From the NCBI GenBank assembly GCA_921293015.1, contig OV121082.1, positions 23,847,997 to 23,911,996 on the forward strand: DNA of 64,000 nt, in the 5' to 3' direction. The position numbers and the translations under genes are program-made. Below the pieces are notes generated by a model, which did not search any database, was not told where the DNA came from, and worked only from the letters and a program-made list of their open reading frames with translations. Origin of the DNA: Phorcus lineatus (Eukaryota > Mollusca > Gastropoda > Trochida > Trochidae). This document shows, piece after piece, positions 7,701 to 44,612 of the stretch; within the stretch, counting starts at the first letter, position 1, and each line of letters opens with the position of its first letter.

Positions 7701-9560
7701 TATTTAGGAGCTATATGATACATGAATGATCAGATTGATTTATGACGCAAGTCCCTTTATAAGACAAGATCTGTGAAAACATTTGCGCATCGTTGTATAT
7801 CTATCTGGTATCTTTGTAGGATTGACGCTTTATTACTTGCTTATGGGCGGATAACAAAAAGCACAATGACTAATTAAATTATGAAAACATATTTTCATTA
7901 TCATAGAGCAAAATAAATGACATCTTTGTCAGTGATCCTGATAAATGAAATACATCCTAGTACCTTGAACTCATTAACATGCATTGTTCCTAAACTTCTA
8001 TAACATGTAACTTTTTAATGATTTCATATTTACATGCTCGAAGCATTAGTGATATATTTGTCCCATAAAATCATTTTCACAATAACCTACGAACGACGTA
8101 AGGTATATGTATGTAGTCCATAATCTTCTTCATCATGCATTCAGTTCTATTTACTGATTCTTGTGGAGGAAAGAAAAAAAGGAAGTTATCTAGTTATTGA
8201 AGTTAAGTCAAGTAGATCAATGAGAACAAACTAAAATGCCGAAACATACCCTTTGGTATCTTGTATAAGGCAATGTGATACATAAGCATAAAAGTGCCTC
8301 AAATGGTAGCTCGGTTGCATACTCCCTTGGAGTTGAGAATGAATATGAAACAACCTTTGAAACAACCAAGAAAATAAAGTTATGTTGCGTTTTGAGTATG
8401 CTCCTCAGTGGTTTTCAGTTCCGCGCATCATAAGTATCCTCATATAAAAAGAAATTGGCCCGATGATATCGAGCCCTCTCCTAAATAAGGTCTCATCGAT
8501 TGACGGAGTTCAACATCAATAAGTGCTTGTCATCAACATAGGATGTTACAGAACTAATAAGTGTCGTCGTTTGAATATCAATAAGAACAGTAAATGGATT
8601 TAAAAAGCGACACCCTGTGAGAAGAGGTCGTTTGATCTAGTCATTTGGACTGAAAGAGCATGTTGTTTTCAACGGTAAACAAATAATGCAACCCAAGAAG
8701 CAGTAAGATCAAAGTTTAGCTGAAGTATCTTGAAGATCAAGAACTCGGCCGAGTGACACTTAATTGATTATCTAACCTTGAAGCGTAATCAATGATTTTG
8801 TATGTGCTCAAACCAGCATTAACACCATATGGACTTTTTATACATGATACTGATATATTATTGAATTCATACTGGACAAAGATATTTAGGGATATATGAA
8901 CATTCTGAAATTATTAATAATGACCTATATTTAACATTAATCATTACCAATTTTAATAATAAAATTTACAATATCCCTTAGTCATTTTGTCTAGGTTATA
9001 TTCAATGAAAGGTATTTCGTTCGGTTACGTATTTGATATACATTTTGTTTAATAAAACTCACATAATTTATTTCATTTTCGTTTTGAATAAGGTAGTCAA
9101 TGCTGATGTTTCTAAGTATTTAATATCTCTTTGTAGAAAGGATAACTATATGCTGTGAAATTAAAAAGCATTCATTGTATTTAGTCGCGTAATATTTCTT
9201 GCCACTTATTATTACATTTTAGATAAATACAATTAACCTATATCTGAGAACTTACAAATATACCTCATCAAACGCGTAATATTTTGTGCCACTTATTATT
9301 ACATTTAAAAAAAACTACAATTAACTTATATCTGCGAACTTACAAATATACCTTTTCATCAAACAAGGCAGTTAATTTTGGGCAACTTTATCATATTGCT
9401 TTATCAGTGAACAAAGTACATAGTTATTGCAATAAACAGTATTTTTTGGAGACATTTCCTCTTTCAAGTTAATTCTTTTCATTATTGTCATTCAAGCCGT
9501 TGATCGATGCTGCAACTCTCAATTAATGACAGGTCTCCCAAATTGAAAAATTGCCGACGT
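7700..9560. other. Non-coding AT-rich DNA, left fringe of the tandem array
   Basis: No gene is seen. Segment 8598-8640 (GCGACACCCTGTGAGAAG, then GGTCGTTTGATCTAG) is a partial copy of the module described at 11291, 30121 and 38786. Segments 9186-9215 and 9272-9305 share CGTAATATTT.TTGCCACTTATTATTACATTT and are followed by similar sequence, an 85-bp local duplication. Confidence 0.5.
9186..9355 (+). repeat. Local tandem duplication, about 85-bp period
   Basis: GCGTAATATTT appears at 9186 and 9271. Each is followed by CCACTTATTATTACATTT, then CAATTAAC, TATATCTG and GAACTTACAAATATACC. The two copies differ by a few substitutions and small indels. Confidence 0.75.
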
Positions 9561-10605
9561 ATAATCAAAGGTCTATACCAAGGATAATGTTCTTGACCCT
9601 TGTTGTTGTTAGAAGCAAGATTTTCTCCTTAATCTCCAAACTATTAAAACTTTTCTTATGCGAACACATGTCCACTTTCTAAAAGGCTGTTAAGCTATCA
9701 ATTATTCTACAGTTGATTCTGGAATTGTATTTGTGGTTTCAGACCTATTGAAATTCGTTCTGGGTTCATTTTGTTCCATTTACAAACTTCGGAGACCAAA
9801 CCTACGATTGAGTGATGATTTGTTTGAAGTATTAAAGACATATCGCAGAATTTAAACAACAGAGAAAATGCATTATTCTATCATGTATGTAAACCTCTTG
9901 ATATATTTTTTAAAAACAACAGATAGTGAGGAACCGTTTTGGTTTCTATTTCTATGAATTTAGAAGAGTATGAGATATAATCATATAGACATTTATAATT
10001 TCTTTAATAACGACCTAAAATGAATTAAGTTGAATTAACATTTGCAAAGTTAATTTTTTTTTATAATAATGCATATTTCAAATATTTTAAGTTTAAGTTC
10101 ATGCCGTTTAATAAAAAAAAACTGATGGACGGTCCTTGAAAAGATTGCTAAAGGAAAGATTATATTTTTTAGCAAAAGCTGATTACAGTAGCGAAGAGAT
10201 CGATTTCGAAACCATACGATATGTGTGCGCTTCCGATCAAACAAAGGAATTTGAGCTCATCTATGTTGAATAGAATTGCTTAGCCAGATTATCATACAGC
10301 TCTGTGCTATCATTGCAAACCTTTGTTTATACTCCTCTCAAAACGATTTGCATTTCATTTTATTGGTATTGTGTGAAATATTTAGTGACAAAACGGGATA
10401 GTCTTCAAGGCCTTCCTATTCATAACATTTTGCTCACTTAACAATTTTTTTTCAATCAGCGATTGATAGAAGACTTAGATTTTTTGCAAATCTTCAACAA
10501 TATAAAAAATAAAAACCATTTGCAGTTAAATTCATGAACTTGATTATGATTATTTGTGTAGATGCTTATATATATATGTGACCTTGCGTTTGAACCAATT
10601 CAACT

Positions 10606-10610
<5 letters not shown>

Positions 10611-10660
<50 letters not shown>
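10611..10660. repeat. (TA)25 microsatellite
   Basis: It is an uninterrupted TA run of 50 bases. Confidence 0.98.
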
Positions 10661-10661
<1 letters not shown>

Positions 10662-11290
10662 GATTCAAAAGTTAAATTCAACTGTCATGCATATAAAATA
10701 TATATAGCCCGGACTATTGTCCATGTATTGTTTCAAAAATCTTACTAAACACCTGTCACGAAGGTATGGTCTAAATGGGGCTAGTAAATTAGACATCTAT
10801 AAATTATCAACGCTAAGACTACGTTAATTAACCTATGTCAAGTTTTGGTTAACTTTAATTAACCGCTGTGTCATAATTCAAGTCATTAATCGATCATAAT
10901 GCTAATTAGAATTCACAAAAACAATATATACAATGTATACATATATACTTGGTGCAAAAGCAACCTTATTTCTTTAATAAAAATAACTATGAGCTAGGGT
11001 ACATATTTCTTTGTTATATTTACATCAGACACATCTTGTTTGATTTTGTCGTAAATTTTCTGTCCTTATCATATCAAAAACATGATTTAGTTATCTTGTG
11101 TTCACCTGTAATAAATCTTTCAAATACACCAAAAATTCTATTTTCAACATATGCAACTTCAACCTCGCTGATCCAAGCATTCTAAGTTAGTTGAAACCTT
11201 GGGGCTTCCTTGATAGCAAACTCCAATTTAACATTTCTTAACAAAGTTCAATCAGTGTCAATTTCCCTAATGTAGATCTAGAAAACCGAT

Positions 11291-11372
11291 GAGTTGTTTT
11301 CATGTTTGAATGTCAGGGATCGAAGCAATTTAAGCTTAGAGGTGGTACCCTTTGAAGAAAGATCGTTTGATC
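11291..11372 (+). repeat. Module M1, unit A copy
   Basis: It reads GTTGTTTTCATGTTTGAATG, TCAGGGATCGAAGCAATTTA, AGCTTAGAGG.GGTACCC and GATCGTTTGATCTGAG in order. The same series recurs at 30121-30207 and 38786-38870. Confidence 0.8.
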
Positions 11373-11841
11373 TGAGAATAAGGATTTAAAGTAGATTTAC
11401 AAGTAATGAATCTGGAGAGAACTATAGACCAATATAGGCGTTCACATTGTGGGTCCGACTGATTAACATCGACCGTGTTCCGAGTAAAAGTTTATCAATC
11501 GGGATTCGTACTCGTTCTGACCAGGGCTTTCCTCTTCACACTGTTTGATAACAGCGAAGCGCATGATCTGACACCAGTTTAGTGCAGACAACACCTTGTC
11601 ATTAAAGGACCAATCACATCATTGCCTTTATAAGAAGGATGGCGGCGATAATTTCAATGGATGTATGACAGGAGTTACTTGCCCCTAGACCGGAGGTTAA
11701 CTGAGTTTACGTCAGAACATGCGCTACGTGTGACCGAGGTCAGACCGTGTTAAAGTACAGGTCTAAAAAGAACCAGATCGAATCTCGATAGAGTCAATGA
11801 CTTGGAATTTTTAACCTCGTAACACGCGATTTTAAAGATCC

Positions 11842-12295
11842 ACTCCGTGAGTTGTTGGAGTCAAACAAACTTAATCAATGGTGTAATTTGATCGACTGCT
11901 AACAAAAAGACACATTTTAAAGCCAATTGTGTTTTTTCAGTGACAATATGAAGGTAGAACGTCGCAATTATGATCGAAAAACCGGACAGTGGCGCGGGTC
12001 ATATAGTAATTTTGGAGACTTATCTAAAACGGCCAGGAGGGCAGTAGTGTTTGTTAGGTTATATAAGTAGTATCCATGTGCATGTATATTGGACGTGATA
12101 TCTCCACCTCTGTGCATTTATAAGGTTGTTTTGAGATTTTCATGGAAAACCAGTATTTGTCATATACATGTCTTTTGGACATGAAAAGTTAAGATGTTCT
12201 GATTTTGTATCACCACAGATGACATTTAGGTTCGTATCAAAGGCAATTAATATGTTATTAAAATCACGGAGTGGCTTTTTAAGCAGACTGCATTT
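11842..12295. mobile_element. Possible MITE with inverted CACGGAGTGG arms
   Basis: Left arm TTTAAAGATCCACTCCGTG (11847-11868 region) is the inverse of right arm CACGGAGTGGCTTTTTAA (12266-12283). The interior holds a GC-rich patch (GATCGAAAAACCGG, GTGGCGCGGG) and is shared with 1957-2170. Target-site duplications were not identified, so the ends are uncertain. Confidence 0.4.
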
Positions 12296-13021
12296 TGAGT
12301 TTGACGATGGTATTTGACTTTTAAGCATTTGAACTTACTCCGGTACTTTCAATGCTCTTTCAGGTAGATTGATATTTTGAAAAGGGGTTTGCATTAAACG
12401 TGTGCGTGTGTGTACAACGTAATTTGATGTCCACTCAACATAGTGAAGTAGAAATTATCAAGACAATTCTCAACTATTTCATATATAATTTTGACCTTAA
12501 CTATTGTAAATTCATTGACCTTGTTGATCATTCATACCTACATGTAAGGATTCTGTACCAATGAATGAATTAACCATACTTGATTCTTTAACTGTACAAT
12601 TTTGAATGTGAAATCAAATTTCGATAGAAAAAACGAATCATGTATCGTTTAGAAGAGTTCATGTTGTGATATGTCACTGAAGGGATTTAATTCCCCGCAT
12701 TATGACATTATTTCGTTGAACTCTCACTACAATCTATGCAAACGCGTGTCTAAATGCTAAGAAGAGTTTCTGGTATTGGTCAAATCACACTACAACCTTA
12801 TTCGTGAATAAAACATAAGTACTGAAATATATTTGAGTACCTATTCATTCTACTATTATATGTAGATAACTTCATGAATTGTGGGAATATTTCTTTGCTA
12901 AGACATATGTCCAGCACATATGTCACAATCTTTGGGGATTAAAATCATTTCCAGACTTTTGTTTTTTTATCTATTTAATACTATGAAGAAGTTTTTTTGT
13001 GTTAATATTACATATAATATA

Positions 13022-13105
13022 TATATATATAATTTTAACACAATATGCTGACAAAGATGCTGAGCCCCTGGCGGGATCGAACCACGGACCTCTTGATGTC
13101 ACTCG
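13022..13105 (-). mobile_element. Truncated tRNA-derived SINE with AT-rich tail
   Basis: On the minus strand it reads TCAAGAGGTCCGTGGTTCGA (B box), then CCCGCCAGGGGCTC, as in the 58.0-kb SINE. It then diverges into a (TA)n tail flanked by GTGTTAA/TTAACAC. The A-box half is missing. Confidence 0.65.
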
Positions 13106-14270
13106 GGGCAAATTTTCATTTTTGAATATATGATTAGTTGTCTTCTCCACTTGTAAAACCTCGGGTTAATGGTTTCTCAGGAAAGTCATGAGCCAATGGT
13201 GATAGAAAATAATAATATTAGCTATGATGATCCTTTACTTATAATGGCAACCCCCTACTTACAAGGCATTATTGCTTTACTCTAGATCTATCCTTACAAG
13301 AAGGATATGGTTATGTACTCGAAATATCTTTAACTGTCAACATTAAATGGTTAGTGATCACACATCAAACGTGATGATGATAAATAGTTCGTTGTTGAAT
13401 CCAATATTTGAGCTTTTTAAGGCACATCTCGAGTGATACCTATGCTTTAAGAGTGGGTGTTAATTGACCTAGTTCTACGCTTCTGTAAGTAATGACCGCC
13501 AGGGACAAAAGTTAATTAACATCGCCTAGAAACCTTTACGCTATATTGGTAAGTATATCCTGTTAACGATACATGTGGGACTTGATTAACGTTGCAAGAT
13601 TTAGTCATGTGTGAAATGAAGAAATTGGTCTATAGAAATCAACCTGCAGAGAGGGAGATATCGAGAGTTTTAAACGAGCAAATGGGTCAAAAATGTACAT
13701 TGCCTCACCAAAACGAGGGTTATATACTTAAAGATGAAAGTCCTACTAAAAGTGTGCTTCAATTTCGAGATGTAGAATATTTTAATTTCTTATCCAAGGT
13801 ATATAATTCAGCAAAACACATTGATACAAAAGTACAAGTTTGAAAACCCGTTGTCAAGGCAATGCTACAAAAGAAGAATTAATGCTAGACAAAGTTGACA
13901 TTTGGACCAATGCACTTGTGATATCGTTGAGTCTTTACGAATGTATGATATAAATATGCGTGACATGAACCGTAACGGAAATAACCAATGTTTGATAAGG
14001 TAGAAAAAAACTCAACAGAACAAATCATTCAATAAACTATTTTATATTGATATCGAATGTGAATATAATTGCACTCTTTTGCACAGGTAAAGAAACGATT
14101 AGAGTTTTTAATTATGAATTTCAATCCTTTAAGAAATAAATTTCAAATATCCCTTTATTCTTGTTAATCTCAATTAAACGTCTTTGTTTTAAACAGATCC
14201 CATACGGTCCTCTATTCACATATGCACAAATTGTCAATGGCAATATCCGGCATGTAGTGGTGTTAACCCG

Positions 14271-14350
14271 TGAGCAGTTTTTATGTTTGAATGTCAGGGG
14301 TCGAAGCAATTCATACTTCAAGGCGACAATTTGTACAAAGAGATCGTTTC
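14271..14350 (+). repeat. Module M2, unit A copy
   Basis: It shares TTTATGTTTGAATGTCAGGG, GTCGAAGCAATTCATACTT and AAGGCGACAA with 31845-31925 and partly with 40035-40100. It is related to M1 but has its own 3' half, so M1 and M2 are an older duplicated pair inside each unit. Confidence 0.75.
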
Positions 14351-16199
14351 ATCTTAGCATAAAGCTTTGATTGATTTTACGCCTAACGAAACTGTAAAGC
14401 AGCAGGGTGCAAATTAAATGTTGGTTCTCTACGTTGGAAGGTATTTTTTCAGTTGCATAGAGCAACTCTTTGATGTCTCCTGAACCATTGTAAGTAAAGG
14501 GGATTTCAACCTTTCAATTTTGTCGATATTTTTACCTATATATATCACAAAAAATGAATATTTCGATTGCTGGTGTTTAATGGTCTATATACCAATAATG
14601 ATGTAAATTGAACGCGTTTTATTTTGTTTAATGCACATACAAAAGACTGTCTTCGATGTTCATTTAAGGCTGTTATATGCCATACTTATTTGTAGATATG
14701 TATTCAAGCTCGGTGATAAGTTTTGAAATATTTTTATTTTTGCACGCATCAACGACAAACGGTATCTTATGAAAAGATATGGAGAGTCCCTGTAATCCTG
14801 CTGTTCGTGTGTAGGAGTGTCTTGTATGCTTACTTCACCACACACTTAAGCATGCTTAATGCGCTGCCCACATGTCTTTCAACAAACCTTTTCATTCAAC
14901 ATTCGATAGGTGGTGTCACTTAGATTTTCAAAAAAGGCATCTGCGGTTATTTACATATCAAGTTTGGGTTGATATTGTATAGGAGGGATCGGCGAGAGTT
15001 CACAATGACATACCAACTATCGTAAGATATTTAGGATTGAAAAATGCTCGTCACTCGAAACTAAAACCTTGCATTTTTCGTCCATCTGCAAATATTTTAT
15101 GAGATCTAGGATTTTTCCCAAATATTTGGTTGCTTTTCATAAACTGCCTTTCATCATTTTAAATTGCAGTGAAATTTAACGATTTATAATTAACATTTTT
15201 AGATATAAATGGGGAAATAGTTTAAAAAATTTGCCGCACAATCCTTTTTTTTTTTAAAATGTAAACTTCCGCATTCGATAATGATACAACACACTTATTT
15301 TCGCATTTTTGTGTCAAGTTCAAACCTTTTTCATTCAACAGTTACATTCAACGTTATTTACAGGTCCAGTGTTTAAATGTTTAAGAGTATGATAGTTATT
15401 GAGTAATTTAGTTAGTTAGTTTGATAGTCAGTTGATATAGTGTAGTTTATGTATGCGGAAATGGTTGACAGGAAATGAACACTAAGCGAGGAAAATGATC
15501 TATAGGTTTTGGATGTATGGTATTATTTTTCAGAAATAACTATATTCTTACACTGTGAAACACACTTTTGTTAAGCAACAGTAATTGCTTGACATTAATT
15601 CATATCGAAACCTACTTTTTTATTCTGTACAGTCATGTAAGTCTTATATTTTCCCATATTTACTTTAAATACATTTTGGTTGGCATTTTTTAACAAAGGA
15701 AAACACAGCAATTTCTATTGATATAAGGTTATTTGATTGTATTCTAGTGTTCTTTTTGCCCTTTATCCTAAAATTAATATTTTCAATTAATTTGCTTTAA
15801 TAGACAAGGAACTTTTGTTGTATACCATGTATATATCATCGAGTGAAGTAGAAATTTATATTTTTATTCATATTTTTGGCCGAAGTTTAGATACAGATAG
15901 TGTTCGAGAGAAATATCTAAAGTTCTATTAATTCTATTCCCAAATAAGTCACAATTACGTTAATTTCATGAACGGAATACCAAGATCGCTTGGTCATCAA
16001 AGACATCCATCCAAGTGATCAGATTAGTTTTTTTAATGTTCGGCGTTAAAAATCGATTATGGTTTGTGAAAGATATCAATATACACATTTAAGTAAGATA
16101 TCAACATAAAAAAATTCTAAGGTTATGATAATGATTAGTCTTAGAAAGAGTTAGGCTGCTACGACAAACATAAAGATAGATAGTTATCATGTTCATCAT

Positions 16200-16201
<2 letters not shown>

Positions 16202-16241
<40 letters not shown>
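16202..16241. repeat. (AT)20 microsatellite
   Basis: It is an AT run without interruption. Confidence 0.97.
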
Positions 16242-16243
<2 letters not shown>

Positions 16244-16494
16244 TTAAGGAAATAAACTTCGAATCAACCATGGAAAGGTGTTTGACGTCGCAGATTAAAT
16301 CTTTCTATGAATGACTATTAAACAATAGAATTCATATTATGTTGACATATGACTAAAATTTATCTTATATCATGAATGACAAATCGACATTTATCACATA
16401 ACATCAAAGCACGGAGATTATTGTTTGACATTCAGCCGGACAGTCAGCCGCTCACTGTACCTCTGCAGAACAGGGTTCCAGATGGTTCATCTCA

Positions 16495-16523
16495 TGACGT
16501 AATTCAATGGCTTCTTGACGTCA
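16495..16523. promoter_or_regulatory. CRE-like sites (TGACGTAA and TGACGTCA)
   Basis: TGACGTAA is at 16495-16502 and the perfect palindrome TGACGTCA is at 16516-16523. These are bZIP (CREB/ATF) consensus sites. No gene start is visible nearby, so function is only a possibility. Confidence 0.25.
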
Positions 16524-17610
16524 CGGATTACTGATTATACGGTTATTTCACTGAGTAAAATGTCATTGTTATTTCACTCATACGGATTTTAGTTTCGACT
16601 TTAAATGGCGTATTTCGCCATTCAGAATTTAATGAAGGTATTTATTGATATAAATCTATTTACGACAAATAAATACATCTTGAGATTGTGCAGAATATTT
16701 GTTTTTAAACCACCAACTGGCATTTCCATGTCCGAAATACAAGCCGCCACCTAAATGCATCCATCTGACTTGTACAACATGTCATTACAGTTTTCGTTTC
16801 CAGTGTTGTAGACACTCCTGGCCTTAAGTGTCAACTTGAAAGTAAATTGGTATAATAAAACTAGAATTAAACAAAAAAGTATTTGTCAACACGATTGTTC
16901 AGACGATCCCATATAAGATTATATATCAATTATTCCCGGATACTTTACAAATACGAGACATTGTTTAGGGGCGTTTTCTTCAGCCCTTGTGGGTACATAC
17001 CTTTTCATTAAATATTTGATGGGCGGTGTTACAAAGTGAAGAGTTGTATGAAAGAGAAATTATTGACAGGAAGTGGACAGTGAGCATTACTATAAAAAAC
17101 TAAAACTTTATATTTGTCATGGCATACCGAAACATATTTGATGTCCGATAAACGACTTCTTCCTTGAATAATTTTTTTTGAAAATTACATTTGATTTAAT
17201 CATCCGCTTGATAAATGATGTATGATAACTGTTGATTTTAATTCATTTTGATCGTTTAAGACTTACTTAATAAAATAAACTTCAGTAAATTGAAAATCAC
17301 TTCCTGAAAAAATCCACACTTTGGAATTTAACGCTAGAGTAAGGCAAGCAATCCCATAATTATCTTGCGGTAAGGGTGTGTTATGAAATTGGAGTAGAAA
17401 TGTTTTGACAAAAAGTCAAGTAGTCATTACACCCTGCAACGGTTTGAATAACAAATCATAAAACGACTAATATCTTCATAGATTTGAATGAGGATTTATG
17501 TAATTAACATTTGTTTTCTTTCTGAAGTTCTATGACTTTCAGGGTGAAGTAAAACTAGTTTGAAATGATATCTTCTTGAATATTTTACCAACAGAATCTA
17601 TAGAATTCTT

Positions 17611-17638
17611 CCCCCCCCCCCCCCCCCCCCCCCCCCCC
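17611..17638. repeat. Poly-C run (28 C)
   Basis: It is an uninterrupted homopolymer of 28 C, an unusual length in DNA this AT-rich. The assembled length may be inexact. Confidence 0.97.
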
Positions 17639-18515
17639 TTCACCGGATCGAGGACTCAAACGCTGAAATGCTATTTACAAGACCCAGTATCATATACTGT
17701 AGATTTGGTGACCATACCGCCAATCATAAGGGCAAATCTGTTTTAGTCTGTTCTCTCTTTCTCAAGAACAGAAAACCGAAGGCTGACTATTATTGCTCTG
17801 CCAATGTTGAATTCAAAATATCATATGAAAACTGGGTGTTTAATTTTCTAAAAATCATAGTGACTCATATAAAATATTATACGTCTTTATGAATAACAGA
17901 GGAGATACCTTATCTTAATTCATACATCATTTAAATAGCACATCTAGATGAATAACGCCTGAAAACTGGTTCAATGAAATGGTATTCAATATACCATTGT
18001 AGGTCTAGGAACTGGTACATATATTGTTACTAGTATTTCTTTTATAGAACAATAACTATCCTTTCGAATCGCAAAATTATCAATGTCTTATGTCCCATAG
18101 AAATATTCCTTAAAAAGTAAACATATCTGAGAAAAAAAACAGATACCAAAAGATACCCATTTATCTATTCAAACGTATCAAATCTATTTAGAAACATATC
18201 CATGACCGTAGTCATTGGATTTTCTGGTAAACAGAATAATGTATACGGTATGCCATGACACTTAATCGAATTTTTTTAATATTCATCTTTGTTAAATGGT
18301 TCTTTCAGTGCCTACAAAATAAACACAATTGATGTGGCATGAAGCCGCAAGTGTGTTATTTACATGTAAGGTATTGTTTAATGTATTTTCGTAATTGGGA
18401 TATTGACTCTTATTATTTGGTCGTTATCCGTTTGCGATATATCTCTGTGACTTCCCTAATTATTACGCTAGCGACGCAATCGGCCGGACCTTACGACGAG
18501 AAAAGTTAGCTATTT

Positions 18516-18539
18516 TGACGTCATCGCACAATGACGTCA
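18516..18539. promoter_or_regulatory. Two perfect CRE palindromes 16 bp apart
   Basis: TGACGTCA occurs at 18516-18523 and 18532-18539 within a locally CpG-richer 100 bp (18460-18600). Spacing of about 1.5 helical turns would put bZIP dimers on opposite faces. No transcript start can be assigned. Confidence 0.3.
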
Positions 18540-33301: not shown

Positions 33302-36300
33302 GACAATGTATAACCTATGATTATCTACTTGGTTGTTCAGAATGTTTGTTCATGCTATACCAGCTTGTGTCAATTAAATTTAAACTGATTTATTGAAATG
33401 ATAACACTAAAGAACACATCTTTGTCATTCAATTCGGAGTAAGGCACGTTATCCATAAACCATCTACATGCAAGAGCTTGTTATGGAATATTAAAACATG
33501 ATTAAGACAGTTATTTTGTCTCTTATAAATATCTATCAAAACATTGTACAAACTTAATCTTCACATCTCATCATCTGCGAAGACTGTACGTGTTAAACAG
33601 AAACAGACATATGAGATAAGTGATACAGCAAGAATATTGGATGAAATTATATTTATCTTGAAGAGTAATAAAAAATCAAAAACATATTCACAATGAATAT
33701 AATATAACCGGACACATCAGCTCAATTATAAAGCAAACATATTGGAACACCATAAATTTACCCTCAATGGTGAATAAACCTTCACAAACAAAATTTTATA
33801 TAAAAGTCACATAAGATTATTTCAATTATAAAAGCAAACACATAAATATAGATTTTCAAGGATCACTAACTTCATCTCAAAGGATGAAGAACAGAAAATA
33901 TGAATCTGCACATAAAATACTTTCTTAAAGTTACAGTTGGATCAGTTAAATTCTCAAAGTAAACACGTTGAAAGCGCATGAAAATGATCTTGACATTTCA
34001 TCTTGGTGGTGAATGAAAAACAAGTCTTCTTTCGCTGATCTTTGATTGCATGCTTACACCCAAAAACAATATTAGTTTTGTTTTTAAAGTATCTTTTCAA
34101 TTACATATTTAAATTATTTCACTGTTATCAAAATGTAAATTTTTGATAAGGATTATCATCAGGGAAACAGTATGTTTTCTGTTAAAACTGAATGAATTGT
34201 TTGAGTTCATATATTTAGATATTTGCAATGCACGCAAAATCGTCTGTCACGTCAAAAATCCTTATGAAAGGTAGCTATTCGTTAAATGTTAAAATCATTT
34301 AAGTCTGATAAAAACATGAATTTTCAATACGTTTTTAACATTTGAAAATAAAGAACTTCCTTTATGCAACTTGAACAAGCTTTTTACGATGACACATTGA
34401 GAGAGATTTTCAATGCTCAATTTCCCTATAAATGTCGATTAGTCAAGCAAAAATCAATGTTATTTTAGAAACATTCATTCAAACGACATGGTGAGATTGT
34501 TTGCTGGCAAATTGAATCATTACCCCTTGAGATTTTCTACCGTTTGGGAATACATTGTATGAATGGAGGTGATAATAGCTTATTGAACTCAATCTGGCTG
34601 GTTTTACTTTCTAACACAAATTATTGATTGCATTACTGTAACCAGATTGAATACTTCTTAATTCGATAGCAGGATGTTTTGAAAGCAAACCTAACTCTTT
34701 GCTTTAGAATTTGGAATTCGATAGCAGTCTAAAAAAGAAAATATGTTAATATAAATATTTCGAAAGGTTTTTTATTATCCAGGCGATTTTTCGTTAAGGG
34801 AGATTAATAACAATTTGTTACGTATATCTGCAAGGTTTTGAATCCAGCATAGTCTTCAAGCCTGTGTCTACGCTTTATGTCGCTAAAATGACACAAAAAT
34901 GTATTTTAATTGATTAGCATTAAACTATATGGTACAGAAAATTCCATACACATTCATTTACTTGAAAAAAGTGCACATTAACCCTAATATTTGGTTTAAT
35001 ATATTTTAATGGCGGTTGTATACATATTTTGAAACTTGCAAATGGCGGCCACCATGGCATGGCGTTATTCAAAGGAAGATAACTCTCAACTGTTCTCGTG
35101 TAGAAAGATTTTATTGAAAGAACACTAATCAATCGTGACTGATGCAGCTCGCTATTGCACTTTTTGAATAAACATAAGAATTGAAATTTAAGATGTTAGT
35201 ATTTGAGATCGTAATTTTAATTACATTGAGGCTGTGATATGGTTTGATATTAATTAGTTGTTCCGTTACTTTATTGGCACGATGCAAACTTGTTTAAAAA
35301 GTTTATTTTTTAAAAATAAATCTTATAAAAAGTTTGTACTAAATAGGATACTTACCTCGTCCCCATTCCATATCAAGTCTATGTCCCTTGGGAAATGATA
35401 TTGCTTTGTCGCTCGTCAAGGCTCGGTAGAAAGCAAAATCAATCCACTCGGAACATAAACTAGATAAGAAAGATATACTATAAGTACGGCATTTTCATTA
35501 TTCATTTTTAAATAATCATTTTCATTTATCTTATTTTCGATTTCAAAACTTCCAAAATGCTCCCAAATACAAAAAGGGCAATTTCAACACTTATTTTCAG
35601 AATGTGTCTTCGGTTTTATTATGATCTAATAATTGCTATTATAAGGTGCTGTTTACTGGTCAACGAACCGTTTGCAATGTGGTTGTTTCCTTCGACTAAA
35701 AAGTCAAAGTGGATAACTGTCATTTCATGATTATTCAAATATAAAACCTCCTATTACAGGATTTTTGGTATCAGTATAATTCTTATTTCATTTACCTTTT
35801 ATGAAACTGTTCGATAAGAAAAATCAGGCGTTAAGCGTTTATCAATTAAAAAATAATACAATGAAGGGAAAAGAAAATGAATGTGAATGTTTTAAAATAA
35901 CAGCATTATGATGTGAGTGATGAAGAGACACATATTTAATGTGCAATGTATTTTGATCTCAATGTTCATGTCAATCAATCATTTGTCAATACATATAATA
36001 TGTGATCAATTATCGCTAACGCATTCATAAAGAAACGAAATCGACTTACTTTGAGATGTTGATGCACTGACAGAATTAAATGGAAGAATCAATTCGTCTT
36101 TAGATGTAACAAATGAATTCCTTTTTCTTTGTTCAGTAGGTTTTTTTTGAGTCCATAACTCATAAATGATAGCCAGCTATGTCGTTATAAATGATTCAAT
36201 ATCTTAACGTATTTATCAGTTTATTATTCGATACTTTAATTTGAGGATTTACTACTGTAACAAAATCAATCTGCCACATGCAATTGTTGCCATTTCCTTG

Positions 36301-37128
36301 TCGTTTGGAGCCTCATAATTCGATAGAATAGAAAACCGGGAAAGGAAATCTATACTGTAAACAGTTCATGTGAAACATTTATTAAATAAAGTAGGAAATG
36401 GCCCAAACCAAATTATATACAAAATATTTCAACAGACATCGGTTGAGACTGGAGCTTTTCAACCCTTGTAATTTCAAAAGACCAATAATCATCAAAATAT
36501 TAATTTGGAGCAATATCGATGGGGTTTTTTTAAGATGAAAATGAAAGAACAATAGAAAAAGAAATAGAATGACTGTGGTGAAATCAATGTTGTTTTCCGA
36601 TGTAAGTATGAACAGGTTAAATTATTTATTCAACAAACGCCAATTAAAAGAATAATGATACGATGTGATACTTTATACGAACTATCTCTAGCAGTGTAAG
36701 CATTGCAAGATAATATGTCCTGAAAGTATGTAATGAATTAGTGAGTGTACAATGTATAGCATAGTTCTCTATGTAATAAAAACTTTCTATGACTTAAGAT
36801 ATGTATTTTTTTCGTTAGTGGGTGTGCTTTCACATAATAGCAATAATGGCATTATAACTTTTAATACATGTATCAGTGTCTGTCAAAAATGGTTAATAGA
36901 TGAATTGAAATAAATTGATTAATGACTTTATAGGTTGGAGATGAAGAATAGACGATTGGTAAGATTGGATAGATACATATGTTAATTTATTGATAAATTA
37001 CATATAGATAAATGGTTGGATAGACGTAGAGGAGAATAACAATGTAACGTAACTTTCATAATTTTTATCCCACTAAAAATACATTTCACTGAGATAAATA
37101 CTGGAATATATTTAATCATTAATCAATT

Positions 37129-37436
37129 CATCCTGCTAACCAAGCGTATATGAATCCGCTCGGATACCCTGATCTCTATCAAGGCAAAACCCTCGTATCG
37201 CTAGCTATGTAACCAGCCAATGAGACCACCCGCATTCAGCAAAAACGACGGCACAACCCGGATGGAAAAATCCGTTGAGTTTAAACCAATAGCTTCAAGC
37301 TCCTTGATTAAAGACATTCATTGGCTGAAAAAATAATAGGTGATCATAGCCACGAATATCAAGCCGCCAGCCATACGAGGGATTTTGGCCCGATCGATTA
37401 TTAGGAAAGATTAATTTACGCTGATTTAGCAGGATG
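37129..37436. mobile_element. 308-bp MITE with perfect 9-bp target-site duplication (Mutator-like)
   Basis: The ends are CATCCTGCTAA (37129-37139) and TTAGCAGGATG (37426-37436), exact inverses. Homology extends inward through AGCGTA and AATC, giving roughly 28 bp of terminal inverted repeat with a few mismatches. A second inverted block follows: AAAACCCTCGTATCGCTAGC (37187) against the inverse of 37367-37388. The element is flanked on both sides by TAATCAATT (37120-37128 and 37437-37445). A 9-bp duplication with long inverted repeats is typical of Mutator/MULE DNA transposons. It has no coding capacity, so it is non-autonomous. It is clearly more GC-rich than the host sequence and interrupts homology between units D and E. 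Confidence 0.85.
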
Positions 37437-38785
37437 TAATCAATTACCACTCCGTATCATATGCTCTTCAAATTAATTCCAATTCGTATACTTAACCAAT
37501 GATTTAAAATAATGATGTTTGTTGTTTGATATAAATCATCTCTACGAAAAATTCCCAACTGCATCTGGGAAAATGGAAATAGACTAGTTGATTAAAGAGA
37601 AATTATTATTTTGATATCATTAGGTATGGCATGGTGTTTAAAACTTCAAGTGTGATTGGTATAACCAAAATGATGAATACTAGATAAGGTAAAGAATGAA
37701 ATATCATTAAACATATCAAAGAAGGAACATGTATGAAGGCACGCGATATGCTCATAAAAGTCTTCTTATTCAACACTTTACTATTTTGAAATAACATCTG
37801 CAGACGATGCGTATTCTTGTAACTCTTTTCTCTTTCTTCTATCAATGTATATAAATGACCTGAATTGCTTAATAAATATTTCATAACTCCGTCTGGTTTG
37901 GATTGGATGAAAAATGCATTGGTGTAAGAATAACAAATTTCGTTATGTAGGAAACAGAACAAATGAGATCATTAAATATGCCTTTAGAACTGACTATTGC
38001 GATTCCATAACGCGAATCTTTTGACAAAAGTAAGCTGTTGCTTCTCAGTTGATTTTTTCTTGTGTGATATATTTCTTTACAGATGAAGATAATTCAACAC
38101 TGTATTAACGAAAAGGTGATAGTTTTACAACATACACCACATGACATTAAGCATATAACAATTCACATGGTACAGTGTTAACTTATCATGCAGTGTATTA
38201 CTTTATCAACAATTTAATACAGAATTGGCGCAAACACAGAAATAGTACATAAAATTACAGTTCATCCTGATTCCATATTCTTTGCAACGTGCCTTTCTAG
38301 TCAACTAAATGCAATACTGAACTAGCCGATTTAATATCATCTTAAAGTGGTAGTCATATTCAATTTCATAATTTATTTTCGGTCTTGATTGACCCTCTGT
38401 GTTGTGTTTATAATCAAGATATTCTACTCAATGTTTACGTTAAAACTTCTCATGTCTCAACTCTCAAGGGCTGTTAATGTCTCGATTTATTTGTTTCTTC
38501 GGTTGATTCACGTTCTGGAGTAGAGAATACTGTATCTAAGCTTATCGAAATAATGTTTGATATACAAATCCTCATTCATAAATTGAGAAGACTAAACTGT
38601 CAACAACTTCAATTATTCATACCAACAGTAAGATTTTTTCTATTTAGAACTATAATATACTTTTGAGGATGGACATGTATATATGACGAAGTATTCTTAC
38701 AGTCCAAACTATCAATATATACTATTCCCAATCAAAGTTCTTCAAAAACTTTTATCAATGTATACATCTCATGTGTAGTCCCATT

Positions 38786-38870
38786 GAACCGACGAGTAGT
38801 TTTCGTGTTTAAATGTCAAGGATCGAAGCAGTTTAAGCTTAGAGGGGTACCCTGTGAAGATCTGATCAGA
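38786..38870 (+). repeat. Module M1, unit E copy
   Basis: It reads CGACGAGTAGTTTTCGTGTT, AAGGATCGAAGCAGTTTAAG and CTTAGAGGGGTACCCTGTGA. It aligns with 11291 and 30121. Confidence 0.8.
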
Positions 38871-39144
38871 ATGAATGGACAAAAAATGGATCAGAAGAAG
38901 AAAAGATGGCTCTAAATGGGTCTAAATGTGTTATTGAGATGCAAGCATTTGCGTTTGCAATGTTCAGTTATGAGCCTTTAAGCATAATCAAGTATTTAAG
39001 GTATCGGATTTATTGATCGTATTTGTTGTTCATCCGTAATGGGGATTCAGTTCCATAAAATTCAGTCTTTCCACCTAGCCTAGGAATTTTTCAAGTTCAA
39101 TTTGTTATTCTAAGCATGGATCATTGGCGCTTTATATCATCATC

Positions 39145-39540
39145 CATTAAAAACACTTCTTTTACAGCAGTCTCGCTTCTTTGATAGGCATTTCAAAATT
39201 TGGTAAGATGAGATGAGATGATCTCAACAGAAATACATCTTCTTTGATTTACAACTTCATTTGTGAAGAAGGGGCTATCTTATGTTCAATAAGTCTAAAA
39301 TCTATGAATTCACAGCATCTTTAATACGTCTTGGGATGAACGTCATTCAAAACACTTCATTGATAGAAGTCTCGCTTCTTTTATAGGCATTCTAAATTTT
39401 GTAAGATGAGGTAGTGGAACTCAACAGAAATACATCTTCTTTGATTTATAACTTTATTTATGAAAAAGGGGCTATCTTATGTTCAATAAGTCTAAAATCT
39501 ATGAATTCACAGCATCTTTAATACGTCTCGGGATGAACGT
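39145..39540 (+). repeat. Local tandem duplication, period about 199 bp
   Basis: Segments 39145-39343 and 39344-39540 share AAAACACTTC, AGTCTCGCTTCTTT, GGGGCTATCTTATGTTCAAT, AAGTCTAAAATCTATGAATT and CACAGCATCTTTAATACGTC. They end in GGGATGAACGT. They differ by only a few bases and small indels, so this duplication is much younger than the macro-units. Unit D has a single copy (30560-30780). Confidence 0.9.
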
Positions 39541-40034
39541 GCTACTCTTGGTCACATGTCCTACCGAATGCAACGGGACAAACCATCGTTGATAACATAA
39601 CAATATTAATTCAATCACAATCATTTAACAATTGCATCTGTATGAAGGCGTTGTGTAACTGAGGTTTTGTGGGAAGAAATTAATTTTTGAAATAAATTAC
39701 ATCATGACATTCAGCTAAGGCTTTTCAAAATGACATCAGCATCTTTCAATACTTGGATCCAAAGATGCAATCATTCAGTTTTCTTCCTCACTGAAGCTGT
39801 AAACAGACATGAACCTCTCTTAATATTTTTATTTCTATTAATTTCCATTATAAAAATGATAGTATCACGAAATGTAAACAATGACGTATCATTCATTATG
39901 TTAATTATTCTTTATGATGTAATGTTCAAGTAAAAGTTTGTGGTTTTATGCAACAGGACGAATAGGGTACTTTAACACAAATAAACAAAGGCAATATACA
40001 GATAGTCCGCATGAAGTGATCTTTCATTAACAAT

Positions 40035-40100
40035 GCGTAGTTTTCATGTTTGAATGTTTTGAATGAAGTCGACGAAATGAAGAAAGATAGTTTCATCAAA
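40035..40100 (+). repeat. Module M2, unit E copy (degenerate)
   Basis: It reads GCGTAGTTTTCATGTTTGAA, then TGAAGTCGACGAAATGAAG, and continues GATTTTGAAATTGATTTCAC, matching unit D after its M2. Confidence 0.65.
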
Positions 40101-40394
40101 GCATTTGATTTTGAAATTGATTTCACATATATAAAATTGTAAAGCATCATGGACAATAGTAAGTGTAGGTAATATGTTGCAGAAGGTGGTTTTCATTTCA
40201 GGGCATTTTAGCATATAAATTTAATTTCATGATGTATCTCGAAACATTTAACAAAGGTTTAAATCTTTGAATCTTTACTTTGAGCTTACAATATGTGATA
40301 ATTATAATTTATATACCCATGATAAAACATTCCAACAAGATATGCTGGCACATTGCTTCAACATCCATGCACCATAATTTCCCTGTCTTCCTCA

Positions 40395-40606
40395 GACTAC
40401 AAACAAAATGCACCCATCTAACTTGTACAACATGTGATTAGAGTTGTGATTTCCACTTCCGGTTGACACACCTGGGGTTAAAGGTCACTGTTGCGCGTCA
40501 AAAACACTTTGATGTAATCTACCCTCCCCAAAATCGTGAGAAAGAAATTGAAAGATTAGATTGAAGGTAAATATGTATACTTCGTGTTGATGTATGTGGG
40601 AGAGAA
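40395..40606 (+). repeat. DR1-bearing dispersed repeat, copy at unit F start
   Basis: It has CACTTCCGGTTGACACACCT, then GGGTTAAAGGTCA (40475-40487), CACTTTGATGTAATCTACCC, AAAATCGTGAGAAAGAAA and TTGATGTATGTGGGAG. Confidence 0.8.
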
Positions 40607-43140
40607 ACTATTCTTAACATCTCTTACTCTACTGAATTTGTCTGATATATTTTCATAATATACTGGCTAAAATCAGTTTAATGCCAGCTGATTTATTTCG
40701 TGTTTTGTATTTGTTTTCAACAACAGTCCTCAACATAGACTGAAAAATTGAATAGTGCGTATTGTAAATCAACATTTGAAACATGTGAAACATTCCAATC
40801 ATGTTTATTTAGAAATAAATACTATCATATATTTTGCAGAAATTTCTATCAAATCATAATGTCTTTTTTAAAATCCAATTTAGTTTTCACTTTTTGTTCC
40901 ATATATTAATCAACATAGATGTTGATGGCAGAGAAAAGTCTATTGTAAAATGAAATTGGAAGGTTGGATTTTGAGTTTCCTTCTTTCAACATGAAAAGGG
41001 TGAAAATTTTTTTTTTTTTTAAAACCACCTGTAAAATGCCTGTCATATGTCTGTAACAGGTAGAAATGACCCGACAATTATCTTAGATTGCATGATTTTG
41101 CCTTTGGAACGTATCAGTTCTATTTCTGAAAGTCATTTATTCGATTACATTTCGAAAACATGAGTTTCTAAAACGAATGTTAACATTAAGAAAACAGAAT
41201 GTTTTGTGAATGGTTTGCGATGGTATTTTTTAGATATGTTTTCACTGCTCAAAAAAAAAGTTTCATAATGAAAGTTAACTATTCGTTTACTTTTCAAATT
41301 GTTAGAGTCTTATAAAACATTTATTTCAATACGGTTTCACCATTTGGAAAAACAGACATTCCTTGTAAAAACTGGTATGAATGTTTCACGAAAGGATTCC
41401 AACTTTAACAAAAGGGTCCCTAAAAATGTCAAAATGTCAAGTCAATATCAATGCGTTTTTTTTAAAGCATTCATTCAAATGACATGATGATATTGTTTGC
41501 TGATAAACTGAATCATTAGGCCTTGTGGTTTTTAACATTGGGGAATACATTGTTTGAATCGAGGTGTTAAAATTTTTAGGACTGAAGATGTGGCTAAGAA
41601 CTCACTGCATTAGAGATACAAGATTGAGTGCTCTTAATTCCTTGGCAGGATTTTTTGAAAGCAACACGTATTTCCTTTCTTCAGAGTTTCGAATTCGATT
41701 GCGTTGCAAAAACGAACATATGTCTATTGAAATATTCCCGAAAAGGTTTAGAGAAAAGCTCGATCATATTGTGTTTAATCCAGTATGATTACGAAACTAT
41801 ACTCAAATAATTCTACCAAATAAATTATTCCGAATCTCAACAATGAAATTCAGAATGTATCTGAGGAAACAGTATGATCTCATACTTAATAAAATCAGGT
41901 GCTGTTTACTGGTTAACGAACCGTTTGAAATGTGGTTGGTCAAAGTGGATACTTGTCCTGTCATAATTAATCAAACATTAGATGTAAAACTGTTATGACA
42001 TTATTTCATGTATTTGAATCGTGCATTTGTCTTTTATGAAACTGTTCGTTAAGGAAAAATAGAAATTTTCATTGAAGAAAATGAAACTATTCATTACGGA
42101 AAAGGGGACATATCTTTTCATTGATCAAGAGTTGAGTGTTATCGATTCAAAATCAAAATAAACTAAGGAAAAGAGAAATGTGTGTACATGTTTTACAATA
42201 AAGGCAAACAGATGTGACTCATAACGATGCCAAAGATGAAGAGAAACATGTCAAATGAACAATTTATTTCGACCGCAATGTTCATGTCAATCAATCAATT
42301 CGTATATAATTATGACATGTGATCAATTTTCGATTATGTATTCATAAAGAAACAAATTCGACTTACTCCGAGATGCGAATGCAGTGACAAAATATATTAA
42401 CTAGAAGAATCAATTCGTCTTCAGATGTTACAGATTACTTGCTTTTTCCTTGTTCAGTACGTTTGCATAAAAAAGGGTTCCATAGATCAACGTTATGAGT
42501 GCTTTATTCGATACTTGATTTTTTAATATATACCACTATGACCAATATCATGTTGGATTGTTACCATTCCCTTTGCATTTGGAGTATCATAACTTGATGC
42601 AATTGAAAACAAAGAAAGCTGAATATTGTGAACACATTTCATGCATCATCAATTCAATTTAAGTATCTAAATACAATAACAGACATCGGTTTGGACGAGT
42701 TATAACAGGGTGTACCTAATTCCTTATTAAATAAAAAATGTTTAAAACAAACACATAATGCGAGGGTGATCAAGGTTGTATCACTTGTACTCAATCCTTT
42801 TCTCATGAATAAAATATGTTTTAAAACGATTATATCGATTTTATTGATGGTTGAATTCCTTTTTAAAAGTAGTTGCATTCAAAGCTACAGTGATACGATA
42901 TGATAATTCATTATGGTTATCTTAGTAATGTGAGTATCGCATAACAATAGGACCGGCAAGTGATCAAGTAATTATTTATTAAACAATGTCAGATAATGTT
43001 AGATAATTCGCTAATGTAATGAAAACTTTGTATTCTGTTTGTTGTTTAAACGCACATATGTTCATGCCCCTCTGAGGCTACGTCAGGAGTGTAGTTCAGT
43101 TCCGTGCGAGTGTTTATACTTTTGGAGATAGATAGATTAT

Positions 43141-43307
43141 AAGGAAGATAATGATATATGGATGTACAACCTCTTTACACAATGACGACGTTTCGGTATA
43201 GATCCTTATACATGATAAGGATGCTTGATAACGGTATAAGAATCTATACCGAAACTTCGCCATTGTGTAATAAAGAAGTTGTACATCAATATATCATTGT
43301 CTTCCTT
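43141..43307. mobile_element. Fold-back element (about 70-bp arms, 22-nt loop)
   Basis: Left arm 43141-43211 (AAGGAAGATAATGATATATG ... TTTCGGTATAGATCCTTATAC) pairs with right arm 43234-43307 with a few mismatches and one 3-nt gap. It belongs to a widespread fold-back type with the phrase GATGTACAAC...ACGTTTCGGTATAG. Each arm also has its own small palindrome, GGTATA...TATACC. A 63-codon frame inside it is not a gene. Confidence 0.85.
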
Positions 43308-44427
43308 ACCCTAGCAGCTCGTATAACGCCACTGAAACAATTCAGATAGATTATAGATATAATGGTTAGATAGACATGTACAAGGTTTTAGATGAATGAG
43401 TTTGTAGCTTTATATTTCATTACAATCACAATACGAGATAGGGTCGAAGTTCATTTACCAAATTGACAGAAAATATTAAATCATGAATATGGTTATGACT
43501 CTCCATTATGCTTTATGTGTAATATTCCTTGAAATCGCAATAATCTATTAAACGATGTTGGGCATTATTGCTGTGTAATATGTGAAAATAAAGTGCTCTA
43601 CTTCTACTTAAACGCTCCTTTCAGGAATCTTGATAGATCGGTTTGATAAAGAGAAATGATTATTATGGTATCCTCATACTTACGAATAATAACATGCTGA
43701 GAGTTCTTAAATTTCACAAATCCAAAACTTGAATAAACCAAAAACAAACCCAAAACGAATTATATCACAAGGGAAGAATTAAATACCTATACTTCATCGA
43801 TGAAGAAAAGAATGCAGAAATGCATGAGATTTGCTCGAACATTCCTTTATCATTACCCTTTAATAGCATCTACAGATGATTGCATTCTTTTAATTACTTT
43901 CCTTTTCTTCCATCGATGTAGATATATGACCTTAATTGCTTGATCAATATTTCATAACTGCGTCTGGAGGGGTTGAATGAAAAGTGCTTAAATTCATTAG
44001 TATAGGAAAAAGAAATTATCGTTATGTTCCCTTAGGAATAATTACCATTCAGAATCTTCTGACATCGTCTGTCGAAAATCATCTTCGCTTCAGTGGGATT
44101 ACTCTTGTACATATTTTATACGAGACAAAACTCAGCAAAATTTAGATGACAGAATGACAGAACTTACTATTGACAGATTTTAATGTCATTTCTTTAGAAA
44201 ATAAACACATCAAAGTTGAAAGTTCACTTGTCAACAAATGTTTAATATGATTCCAAGGATTTGATTATTGAATTTCAAGTAATTTTTTAAGGTCTGAGGT
44301 TTTTATAGGTTACATGAGATTTCATTATTACATTATTTCTCTTCCATGTCCCTCTCCTTAACCCGTTCCTATTCCCAAACCCACGTATTTCCCGACTAAA
44401 ACAAAGCATTTGTCAGGTTTGTGTTAT

Positions 44428-44612
44428 CAGTGATAACATTTGACGTTCCAATTTCCGGTTCAACTATATGAACACCTGTATAGGTCAAAGTTCATTGCAC
44501 TGTGCTCCCGTGACTTCAATAAAAATCACCCACATGAAATCGTGACTCTTTCAAAAATACATTATGATATCAATTAACGTGAATATTATCTTAACCAATT
44601 GAGTGGGAGTTA
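44428..44612 (+). repeat. DR1-bearing dispersed repeat, last plus-strand copy (unit G remnant)
   Basis: It is degenerate: CCAATTTCCGGTTCAAC, AGGTCAAAGTTCA (44482-44494, a good DR1), GAAATCGTGACTC and GAGTGGGAGT. Homology to the units fades after about 44660. Confidence 0.6.

What the first reader, a model, noticed from the sequence alone, without database searches (positions are those of the whole stretch)
9560..44612. Ancient 35-kb tandem array of large, diverged macro-units with no gene inside
About a dozen short anchors recur in the same order in units A to G. Examples are AACTGACTATTGCGA (28747, 37986), CTGTTTACTGG.AACGAACCG (35648, 41901), ACTTGACCCTTT-like (9592, 18763, 38387), GATGAAGAATAGA.GATT (27907, 36943), M1 (11291, 30121, 38786) and M2 (14271, 31845, 40035). 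The units are too diverged for standard tandem finders. None conserves an ORF, so this is either a dead macrosatellite or a decayed non-coding duplication cluster.
Basis: seen in the sequence. Interest (0 to 1): 0.75.

Follow-up and report, generated by a model that had tools for sequence, protein, structure and literature searches.

The report
Ancient four-unit non-coding tandem duplication
A 35-kilobase stretch of an animal chromosome consists of four very old, badly eroded copies of the same non-coding block, and a short element inside the copies has stayed nearly unchanged, which suggests that it may still help to control a gene.

Summary
In detail: 9575-44274 is a colinear, same-orientation tandem duplication of non-coding DNA. 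I count four macro-units (about 9.2, 10.4, 9.2, 5.9 kb), not seven, with module order A-B-C1-C2-D-E-F-G/H plus internal duplications and losses. Same-module copies are 47-73% identical. Genome searches with C, D, F and G/H sequences hit only this array, except one 70-bp hit, so it is no transposon family. No coding or RNA-structure signal was found.

"Macrosatellite" does not fit: few, unhomogenised copies. "Dead" is doubtful: two islands evolve far more slowly than their surroundings, C (six copies) and the D core. A 24-base D word occurs four times in the 958-Mb genome (up to 3 mismatches allowed), all here, with 0-1 mismatch, though the surrounding D-E module is about 60-65% identical. A profile of three inverted copies at 53.8-56.1 kb, containing no array letters, recovers four of five array D cores. 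The array ends 47 kb before a neuregulin-like exon. Best reading: old segmental duplication in a gene-poor stretch, mostly neutral, carrying retained, probably cis-regulatory elements. Function and target gene are untested.

The parts
9575..18747 (+). Macro-unit U1 (module A 9575-9795, C1 10727-11466, C2 13270-14567, D 16600-16926; B and E-H not found at the sensitivity used)
   Evidence: blastn/nhmmer matches to the other units; unit ends inferred from module order
18748..29139 (+). Macro-unit U2 (A 18748-18982, B 19413-19714, C2 19757-20635, D-E twice at 21158-22988 and 23161-25400, F 25135-25857, G/H 27461-28800)
   Evidence: unit ends inferred
29140..38388 (+). Macro-unit U3 (A 29151-29290, B 29312-29614, C1 29571-30732, C2 30800-32153, D-E 32858-35032, F 35515-36450, G/H 36455-38226)
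   Evidence: unit ends inferred
38389..44274 (+). Macro-unit U4 (A 38389-38584, C1 38492-39332, C2 39615-40343, D-E 40258-41770, F 41763-42700, G/H 42679-44274)
   Evidence: unit ends inferred
11284..11371 (+). C island, C1 copy of U1 (limits of all C islands approximate)
   Evidence: 6-copy alignment, 18 of 30 columns invariant, 0 of 1000 shuffles reach it
14265..14330 (+). C island, C2 copy of U1
30115..30202 (+). C island, C1 copy of U3
31846..31915 (+). C island, C2 copy of U3
38787..38861 (+). C island, C1 copy of U4
40028..40057 (+). C island, C2 copy of U4 (only the 5' part kept)
16785..16842 (+). D core, U1 copy (diverged)
   Evidence: nhmmer; alignment A5
21515..21572 (+). D core, U2 first copy
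   Evidence: genome-wide 24-mer search (1 mismatch)
23509..23567 (+). D core, U2 second copy
   Evidence: 0 mismatches
33135..33190 (+). D core, U3 copy
   Evidence: 0 mismatches
40439..40497 (+). D core, U4 copy
   Evidence: 0 mismatches
53782..53838 (-). D-like element outside the array, inverted; lacks most of the middle block
   Evidence: part of the 3-copy model
55400..55470 (-). D-like element outside the array, inverted
   Evidence: found by the array-only profile, E 5e-4 in the window, 2e-3 in 264 kb
55712..55792 (-). Weak fourth D-like element, inverted
   Evidence: E 6e-4 with the profile of the other three inverted copies
55986..56046 (-). D-like element outside the array, inverted
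   Evidence: found by the array-only profile, E 2e-3 in the window, 9e-3 in 264 kb; genome DNA search with it finds only itself
22783..22816 (+). E island (homologues at 24834-24863, 34453-34482, 41447-41478)
   Evidence: 24 of 30 columns invariant, above the 99% shuffle threshold of 23
25859..27455 (.). 18-bp minisatellite (about 87 copies) grown inside U2 between F and G; U3 and U4 lack it
   Evidence: TRF; junctions compared

Best explanation
An intergenic, non-coding block of about 9 kb was duplicated in tandem, head to tail, long ago, after a shorter segment inside it (C) had already doubled. The four units then diverged by substitution, indels, local insertions and an 18-bp minisatellite expansion, to 47-73% identity between copies of a module (this part is shown). 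Most of each unit looks neutral. A few short elements, above all the D core and the C island, changed far more slowly (shown within this genome). The inferred step is that these are transcription-factor binding clusters, so that the array is a set of old, partly redundant cis-regulatory modules in a gene-poor stretch upstream of a neuregulin-like EGF-ligand gene. The D element has three blocks (TTTCCACTTCCGGTT, GACACACCTG, GGGTCAAAGGTCA) with spacers of 0 to 11 bp; these resemble, from recall and untested, an ETS site, a T-box/E-box-like site and a DR1 nuclear-receptor site.
For: Colinear forward matches, none inverted between different parts of the array. C1 copies form a clade apart from C2 (support 1.000), and U3 with U4 group in both C1 (0.894) and C2 (0.891). 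Genome searches, the query itself counted: F 5 of 5 matches in the array, D 4 of 4, G/H 4 of 4, C 5 of 6, the sixth a 70-bp hit. No coding signal: 9 of 241 windows z>2 against 10 of 241 in shuffles, while TLR paralogues next door give 39-58% at <=85% identity and 19-31% over all windows. Slow islands: D-E has a run of 20 columns with 0 changes against a mean of 16.3, 0.1% shuffle level 2; C and D windows reached by 0 of 1000 shuffles. D 24-mer: 4 hits genome-wide at <=3 mismatches, all here, backward control 0. A profile of the three inverted copies recovers 4 of 5 array D cores, E 1.2e-6 to 2.3e-3; reversed control best E 2.8. C1- and C2-specific letters persist in and beside the C island, so conversion between C1 and C2 did not make it alike. 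NRG2_N-like exon at 91850-92374.
Against: No expression, chromatin or second-species data. Pairwise patchiness of the array (variance ratio 2.41) is close to that of TLR flanks (2.17) and array 2 (1.98). In the multi-copy test one 3-way TLR flank also has a significant window (p=0.002) and array 2 comes near (p=0.05); variance ratios are 4.2-4.9 for C1, C and 4-copy D-E, but 3.2 for 3-copy D-E, 2.5 for F, 2.2 for G/H, against controls of 1.8-3.4. Modules A, C2 (4 copies) and F show no significant island. With all six copies the C island is only between the 0.1% and 1% shuffle levels on the tree, and its limits were set by eye. The U1 D core and the C2-U4 island are eroded, and the 53.8-kb copy lacks most of the middle D block. 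The link to the neuregulin-like gene is proximity only, and the NRG2_N score (26.8) lies just under its cutoff (27).
Confidence: 0.57

Rival explanations
1. Wholly dead, neutrally decaying segmental duplication. The slow islands reflect local mutation-rate differences, small conversion tracts or alignment luck.
For: Average divergence is like or above that of neighbouring TLR flanks (71-80% identical); patchiness between pairs is similar to those flanks; one TLR flank also has a significant 3-way window.
Against: D core: 24 bases identical in three units and 1 mismatch in a fourth copy, while the D-E module is 59-66% identical; two separate clusters share the element; C1/C2-specific letters are kept.
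Confidence: 0.27
2. The units are loci of long or small non-coding RNAs (lncRNA, piRNA or miRNA host), and the islands are exons or promoters.
For: Non-coding units with conserved short blocks; one alifold window in E (22737) has energy -10.5, z -5.7; the U4 hairpin 43172-43273 gives a sub-threshold mir-286 match, 32 against 54 bits.
Against: No Rfam match at gathering score in the window; consensus folds have almost no covariation (+0.38 and -0.75 kcal/mol); the hairpin segment is a gap in U2 and U3 (alignment).
Confidence: 0.1
3. Relics of a decayed tandem gene family (for example receptors like the TLR cluster 68-99 kb to the left) whose exons were lost.
For: Unit spacing of about 9 kb resembles the 8-12 kb spacing of the TLR copies.
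Against: tblastn of four TLR ORFs: best hit inside the array E 2.1; no coding signal in 241 windows; Pfam scan of 111 ORFs >=52 aa finds nothing credible, best E 0.0057; only 20.5% of 307 gaps are multiples of three.
Confidence: 0.05
4. A transposon family or a true macrosatellite.
For: Kilobase-sized tandem units.
Against: Genome searches with C, D, F and G/H hit only the array, one 70-bp hit apart; four unhomogenised copies; the C1/C2 tree.
Confidence: 0.01

Closest known systems
Diverged tandem segmental duplication of intergenic DNA
   Same: Colinear, same-orientation, kilobase-sized units confined to one locus
   Different: Old (K80 0.33-0.94 between copies of a module) yet still alignable over kilobases; carries slow islands
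Redundant ('shadow') or duplicated enhancers upstream of developmental genes (class recalled, no call)
   Same: Several copies of short slow non-coding elements, both orientations, upstream of a signalling-ligand-like gene
   Different: Regulatory activity not shown; target gene inferred from proximity only; copies are tandem paralogues of a block
Macrosatellites such as D4Z4/DXZ4 (recalled, no call)
   Same: Kilobase-sized tandem units in one locus
   Different: Only four units, not homogenised, no ORF found

Membership tests
Tandem segmental duplication | Several colinear modules in the same order and orientation | tested here: met
Tandem segmental duplication | Module trees fit block duplication, not independent insertions | tested here: met
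   C1|C2 split support 1.000, U3+U4 grouped in both. Unit branching order is not resolved: the D-E tree joins U2's second copy with U3 (0.784), the D-only tree is unresolved (0.019), and G/H makes U2-U3 closest
Macrosatellite | Many near-identical, homogenised copies | tested here: not met
   four units, 47-73% identity between copies of a module
Transposable-element family | Copies dispersed in the genome | tested here: not met
   this search favours closer copies (it missed the U1 D copy) and calls its counts lower bounds
Decayed protein-gene cluster | Residual coding signal between paralogues | tested here: not met
   positive control
Structured ncRNA array | Rfam match or covarying consensus fold | tested here: not met
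   only the E and C islands were folded as alignments, other windows by the scan
Cis-regulatory (enhancer) cluster | Non-coding elements slower than their surroundings | tested here: met
   C and D islands; not met for A, C2 (4 copies) and F
Cis-regulatory (enhancer) cluster | Orientation-independent recurrence near a regulated gene | tested here: inconclusive
   Inverted D copies at 53.8-56.1 kb; neuregulin-like exon 47-82 kb from the array
Cis-regulatory (enhancer) cluster | Open chromatin, factor binding, reporter activity | not testable with these tools
   no functional data

The most novel reading that the evidence does not exclude
A locus-private composite regulatory element (three blocks with flexible spacers), found in eight and perhaps nine copies and in both orientations over 16.8-56 kb of a gene-poor stretch. 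It was amplified in part by ancient block duplication and kept by selection while the surrounding DNA decayed, and it serves as a homotypic enhancer cluster for a neuregulin-like ligand gene.
Probability: 0.35. Interest if true: 0.6.

Novelty: new member of a known kind. Interest (0 to 1): 0.42.

Why it matters
If the islands are regulatory, the locus is a natural experiment in enhancer amplification: four to six paralogous modules, with apparently neutral DNA between them as an internal clock, show which binding blocks are kept and which are free to move. Even if dead, it shows that non-coding tandem duplications can stay recognisable at K80 around 0.5-0.9, and that such gene-free arrays are better found by sensitive self-alignment or profiles than by tandem-repeat finders.

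Tried and rejected
TLR origin: a 63% match of 36895-37646 to the 5' flank of a TLR ORF looked like a link, but in the alignment it fits U3 and not U2 or U4, and the flank copy is partly self-palindromic, so it is probably a transposon; TLR proteins find nothing in the array. LRRNT-like reading of module A (QCPKGCYC...): copies carry frame-breaking gaps and Pfam finds nothing. D core as a minus-strand exon: 1-bp gaps between copies, no D-core window among the high coding scores. Conserved hairpins: the strongest (43180) is in U4; folds lack covariation. Of 13 alifold windows with z<-3 among 288, three have meaningless z from zero-variance shuffles. A viral-contig scan for the D word found 0. 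A fuzzy regex scan timed out. A D-like site at 44.4 kb (E 0.14 and 0.67) and a C-like site at 8.6 kb (E 2e-4) may be remains of further units; not pursued. The organism was not identified (a COX1 family search did not complete). Literature: four searches, of which I saw the listings with abstract openings only; no paper was read. None of the listed titles describes such an array, which is no proof that none is in print.
Full report
Where it lies. The window is G000:C2:23847997-23911996 in a 957.8-Mb assembly of 74 contigs. The size, GC of 32% (base counts), TLR-like genes and tyrosine-recombinase ORF point to an animal, probably an invertebrate (inference; species not identified). I fetched 100 kb on each side. 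To the left lies a cluster of TLR-like genes on the minus strand (-90 to -58.8 kb in window coordinates; stop-to-stop ORFs of 860, 767, 283 and 860 codons). Of two ORFs scanned, both have leucine-rich repeats and one a TIR domain (the other is cut off before it ends). At 0 kb lies a tyrosine-recombinase ORF (PF00589). To the right, at 91850-92374 (+), lies an exon-like ORF with an NRG2_N match of 26.8 bits, cutoff 27, and at 161217 an EGF-like CFNGGTC piece. ORFs in the flanks were listed only at >=100 codons, so small exons could be missed.

The observation. Masked self-blastn gives 45 of 57 forward matches inside 9.4-44.8 kb; 37 of the 45 beat the best reversed-sequence control (49.1 bits). 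There are no inverted matches between different parts of the array; 22,811 of 35,401 bases are covered by 36 forward matches of >=60 bits. The other 35-kb tiles examined have 20, 5 and 10 forward matches to the left (-99 to 6 kb: TLR genes, array 2, transposons) and 2, 1 and 0 to the right (41 to 146 kb, the first including the array's last 3 kb); the tile 6-41 kb, mostly array, has 30.

Anatomy. Profiles of modules place A at 9575, 18748, 29151, 38389; C at 11062, 14041, 29883, 31629, 38574, 39850; D at 16663, 21385, 23400, 33049, 40335; F at 25135, 35716, 41989; G/H at 27837, 37135, 43272. Within 264 kb these modules are confined to the array apart from a transposon-like piece of G/H near -58 kb and weak D and C relatives. 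This makes four units; B, E, F and G/H were not found in U1, C1 not in U2, and U2 has D-E twice. Identities between copies of a module are 0.47-0.73 (K80 0.33-0.94), C1 against C2 down to 0.45 (K80 1.01). The C1 copies separate from C2 with support 1.000, and U3 with U4 group in both (0.894, 0.891); C2 alone, with a U2 copy, gives the same U3-U4 pair (1.000). But D-E joins U2's second copy with U3 (0.784), the D-only tree is unresolved, and G/H makes U2-U3 closest, so the branching order of whole units is not settled.

Not a dispersed element. Whole-genome DNA searches, the query itself counted, find module F (5 of 5 matches), D (4 of 4) and G/H (4 of 4) only in the array; C gives 5 in the array and one 70-bp hit far away on the same chromosome. 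The tool calls its counts lower bounds and favours closer copies: the D search missed the U1 copy and the inverted copies. Modules A, B and E were not searched genome-wide on their own.

Not coding, not structured RNA, by these tests. Mismatches show no consistent three-base period and only 20.5% of 307 gaps are multiples of three. In 241 gap-free windows (>=45 columns, >=55% identity) the six-frame substitution score has mean z 0.07, with 9 above 2 against 10 in shuffles; the same test on TLR paralogues gives 39-58% above 2 at <=85% identity and 19-31% over all windows. Pfam on 111 ORFs of >=52 aa: 5 families, one member each, best E 0.0057. Rfam: none at gathering level in the window; one sub-threshold hit on a U4 hairpin. 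The two consensus folds made lack covariation.

Slow islands. Column shuffles: C (6 copies) 18 of 30 invariant, C1 (3 copies) 26 of 30, D-E (4 copies) 27 of 30 and D-E (3 copies) 29 of 30, each reached by 0 of 1000 shuffles; G/H p=0.008; F p=0.17. A and C2 (4 copies) are not significant. Controls: a 3-way TLR flank p=0.26 (short) and p=0.002 (long), TLR ORFs p=0.70, array 2 p=0.05. Variance ratios are 4.87, 4.46 and 4.21 for C1, C and 4-copy D-E, 3.16 for 3-copy D-E, 2.46 for F and 2.19 for G/H, against 1.78, 2.91, 2.65 and 3.39 in the controls. Pairwise patchiness does not set the array apart (2.41 against 2.17 in TLR flanks, 1.98 in array 2 and 2.57 in TLR ORFs). Parsimony on the tree: D-E has 20 columns with 0 changes, mean 16.3 (0.1% shuffle level 2). 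The C island, with limits set by eye, has 0.40 changes per column against 1.05 in its flanks with five copies (below the 0.1% level of 0.51), and 0.71 against 1.29 with six (best window 0.69, between the 0.1% and 1% levels of 0.67 and 0.71). Nine columns in and beside the island separate C1 from C2 (C2-U4 left out of that count), which speaks against homogenisation between C1 and C2.

The D element. The word TTTCCACTTCCGGTTGACACACCT occurs four times in the 958-Mb genome at up to three mismatches: three exact, one with a single mismatch, all in the array; the backward control gives 0. A profile made only from three inverted copies at 53.8, 55.4 and 56.0 kb recovers array copies at 40422 (E 1.2e-6), 23495 (1.9e-4), 33135 (1.8e-3) and 21518 (2.3e-3), plus 55.71-55.79 kb (6e-4); the next is 44369 (0.14); best reversed control 2.8. 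The fifth array copy (U1) was not recovered. The inverted copies had been noticed by translated similarity and by the array profile, so their choice is not blind, but their profile holds no array letters. The alignment shows three blocks with spacers of 0, 2 or 11 bp between the first two and 0 to 3 bp between the last two; the 53.8-kb copy lacks most of the middle block. Variable spacing between fixed blocks is what binding sites would give; the factor names are recalled, not tested.

Interpretation. The duplication itself is as good as shown. That C and D are retained by selection is likely; that they are enhancers of the neuregulin-like gene is an inference from non-coding nature, recurrence in both orientations, locus specificity and position. 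The strongest rival is a wholly dead array.

A wider pattern. A second array with unrelated modules and no long ORF lies at about -39.6 to -17.4 kb; a genome search with one of its modules gives 3 matches, all there. Its coding potential was not tested. So this region has at least three old tandem clusters side by side: TLR genes, array 2 and array 1.

Noticed in passing
window coordinates -39600 to -17400 (L011-L014): A second, unrelated ancient tandem array (offsets of about 7.7-10.7 kb and 3 kb, 56-65% identity in the aligned pairs); one module tested genome-wide is private. Taken as non-coding for lack of long ORFs; coding potential not tested.
   Followed up: partly
window coordinates -90000 to -58760 (L007-L010): Tandem cluster of TLR-like genes (LRR and TIR domains; about 75-81% protein identity between the longer copies) on the minus strand, at least one copy broken.
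   Followed up: partly
window coordinates -53792 to -50723: Duplicate of the 3' flank of the rightmost TLR gene (66-84% identity, about 10-kb offset) with no TLR ORF match beside it: perhaps a lost copy.
   Followed up: no
25859-27455: An 18-bp minisatellite of about 87 copies inside U2; U3 and U4 carry a single similar word at the same junction (ACATCGGTTGAGACTGGAGCT in U3), the likely seed.
   Followed up: partly
91850-92374: Neuregulin-like (NRG2_N, just under cutoff) first exon on the + strand, the next recognisable gene to the right; an EGF-like piece lies at 161217.
   Followed up: partly
50832-51632: 42-bp tandem repeat with a long open frame (YRDGDGSNAGDVVE repeats, minus strand); its Pfam hits are likely low-complexity matches.
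   Followed up: no
46813-47050 and 57990-58231 (inverted relative at 7626-7755): A 240-bp repeat, 83% identical; looks like a tRNA-derived SINE from recall, but ARAGORN finds no tRNA.
   Followed up: no
43140-43308: A 170-bp palindrome (84% arm match) in U4, a gap in U2 and U3; sub-threshold mir-286 match (32 against 54 bits); probably a MITE.
   Followed up: no
1-858 (upstream ORFs begin near -2971): Tyrosine-recombinase ORF (PF00589) of a transposon, probably DIRS- or Crypton-like from recall, with a 19-bp tandem repeat behind it.
   Followed up: no
window coordinates -26394 to -25694 and -18064 to -17364: A 700-bp pair that is 99.3% identical in forward orientation, far younger than its surroundings.
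   Followed up: no
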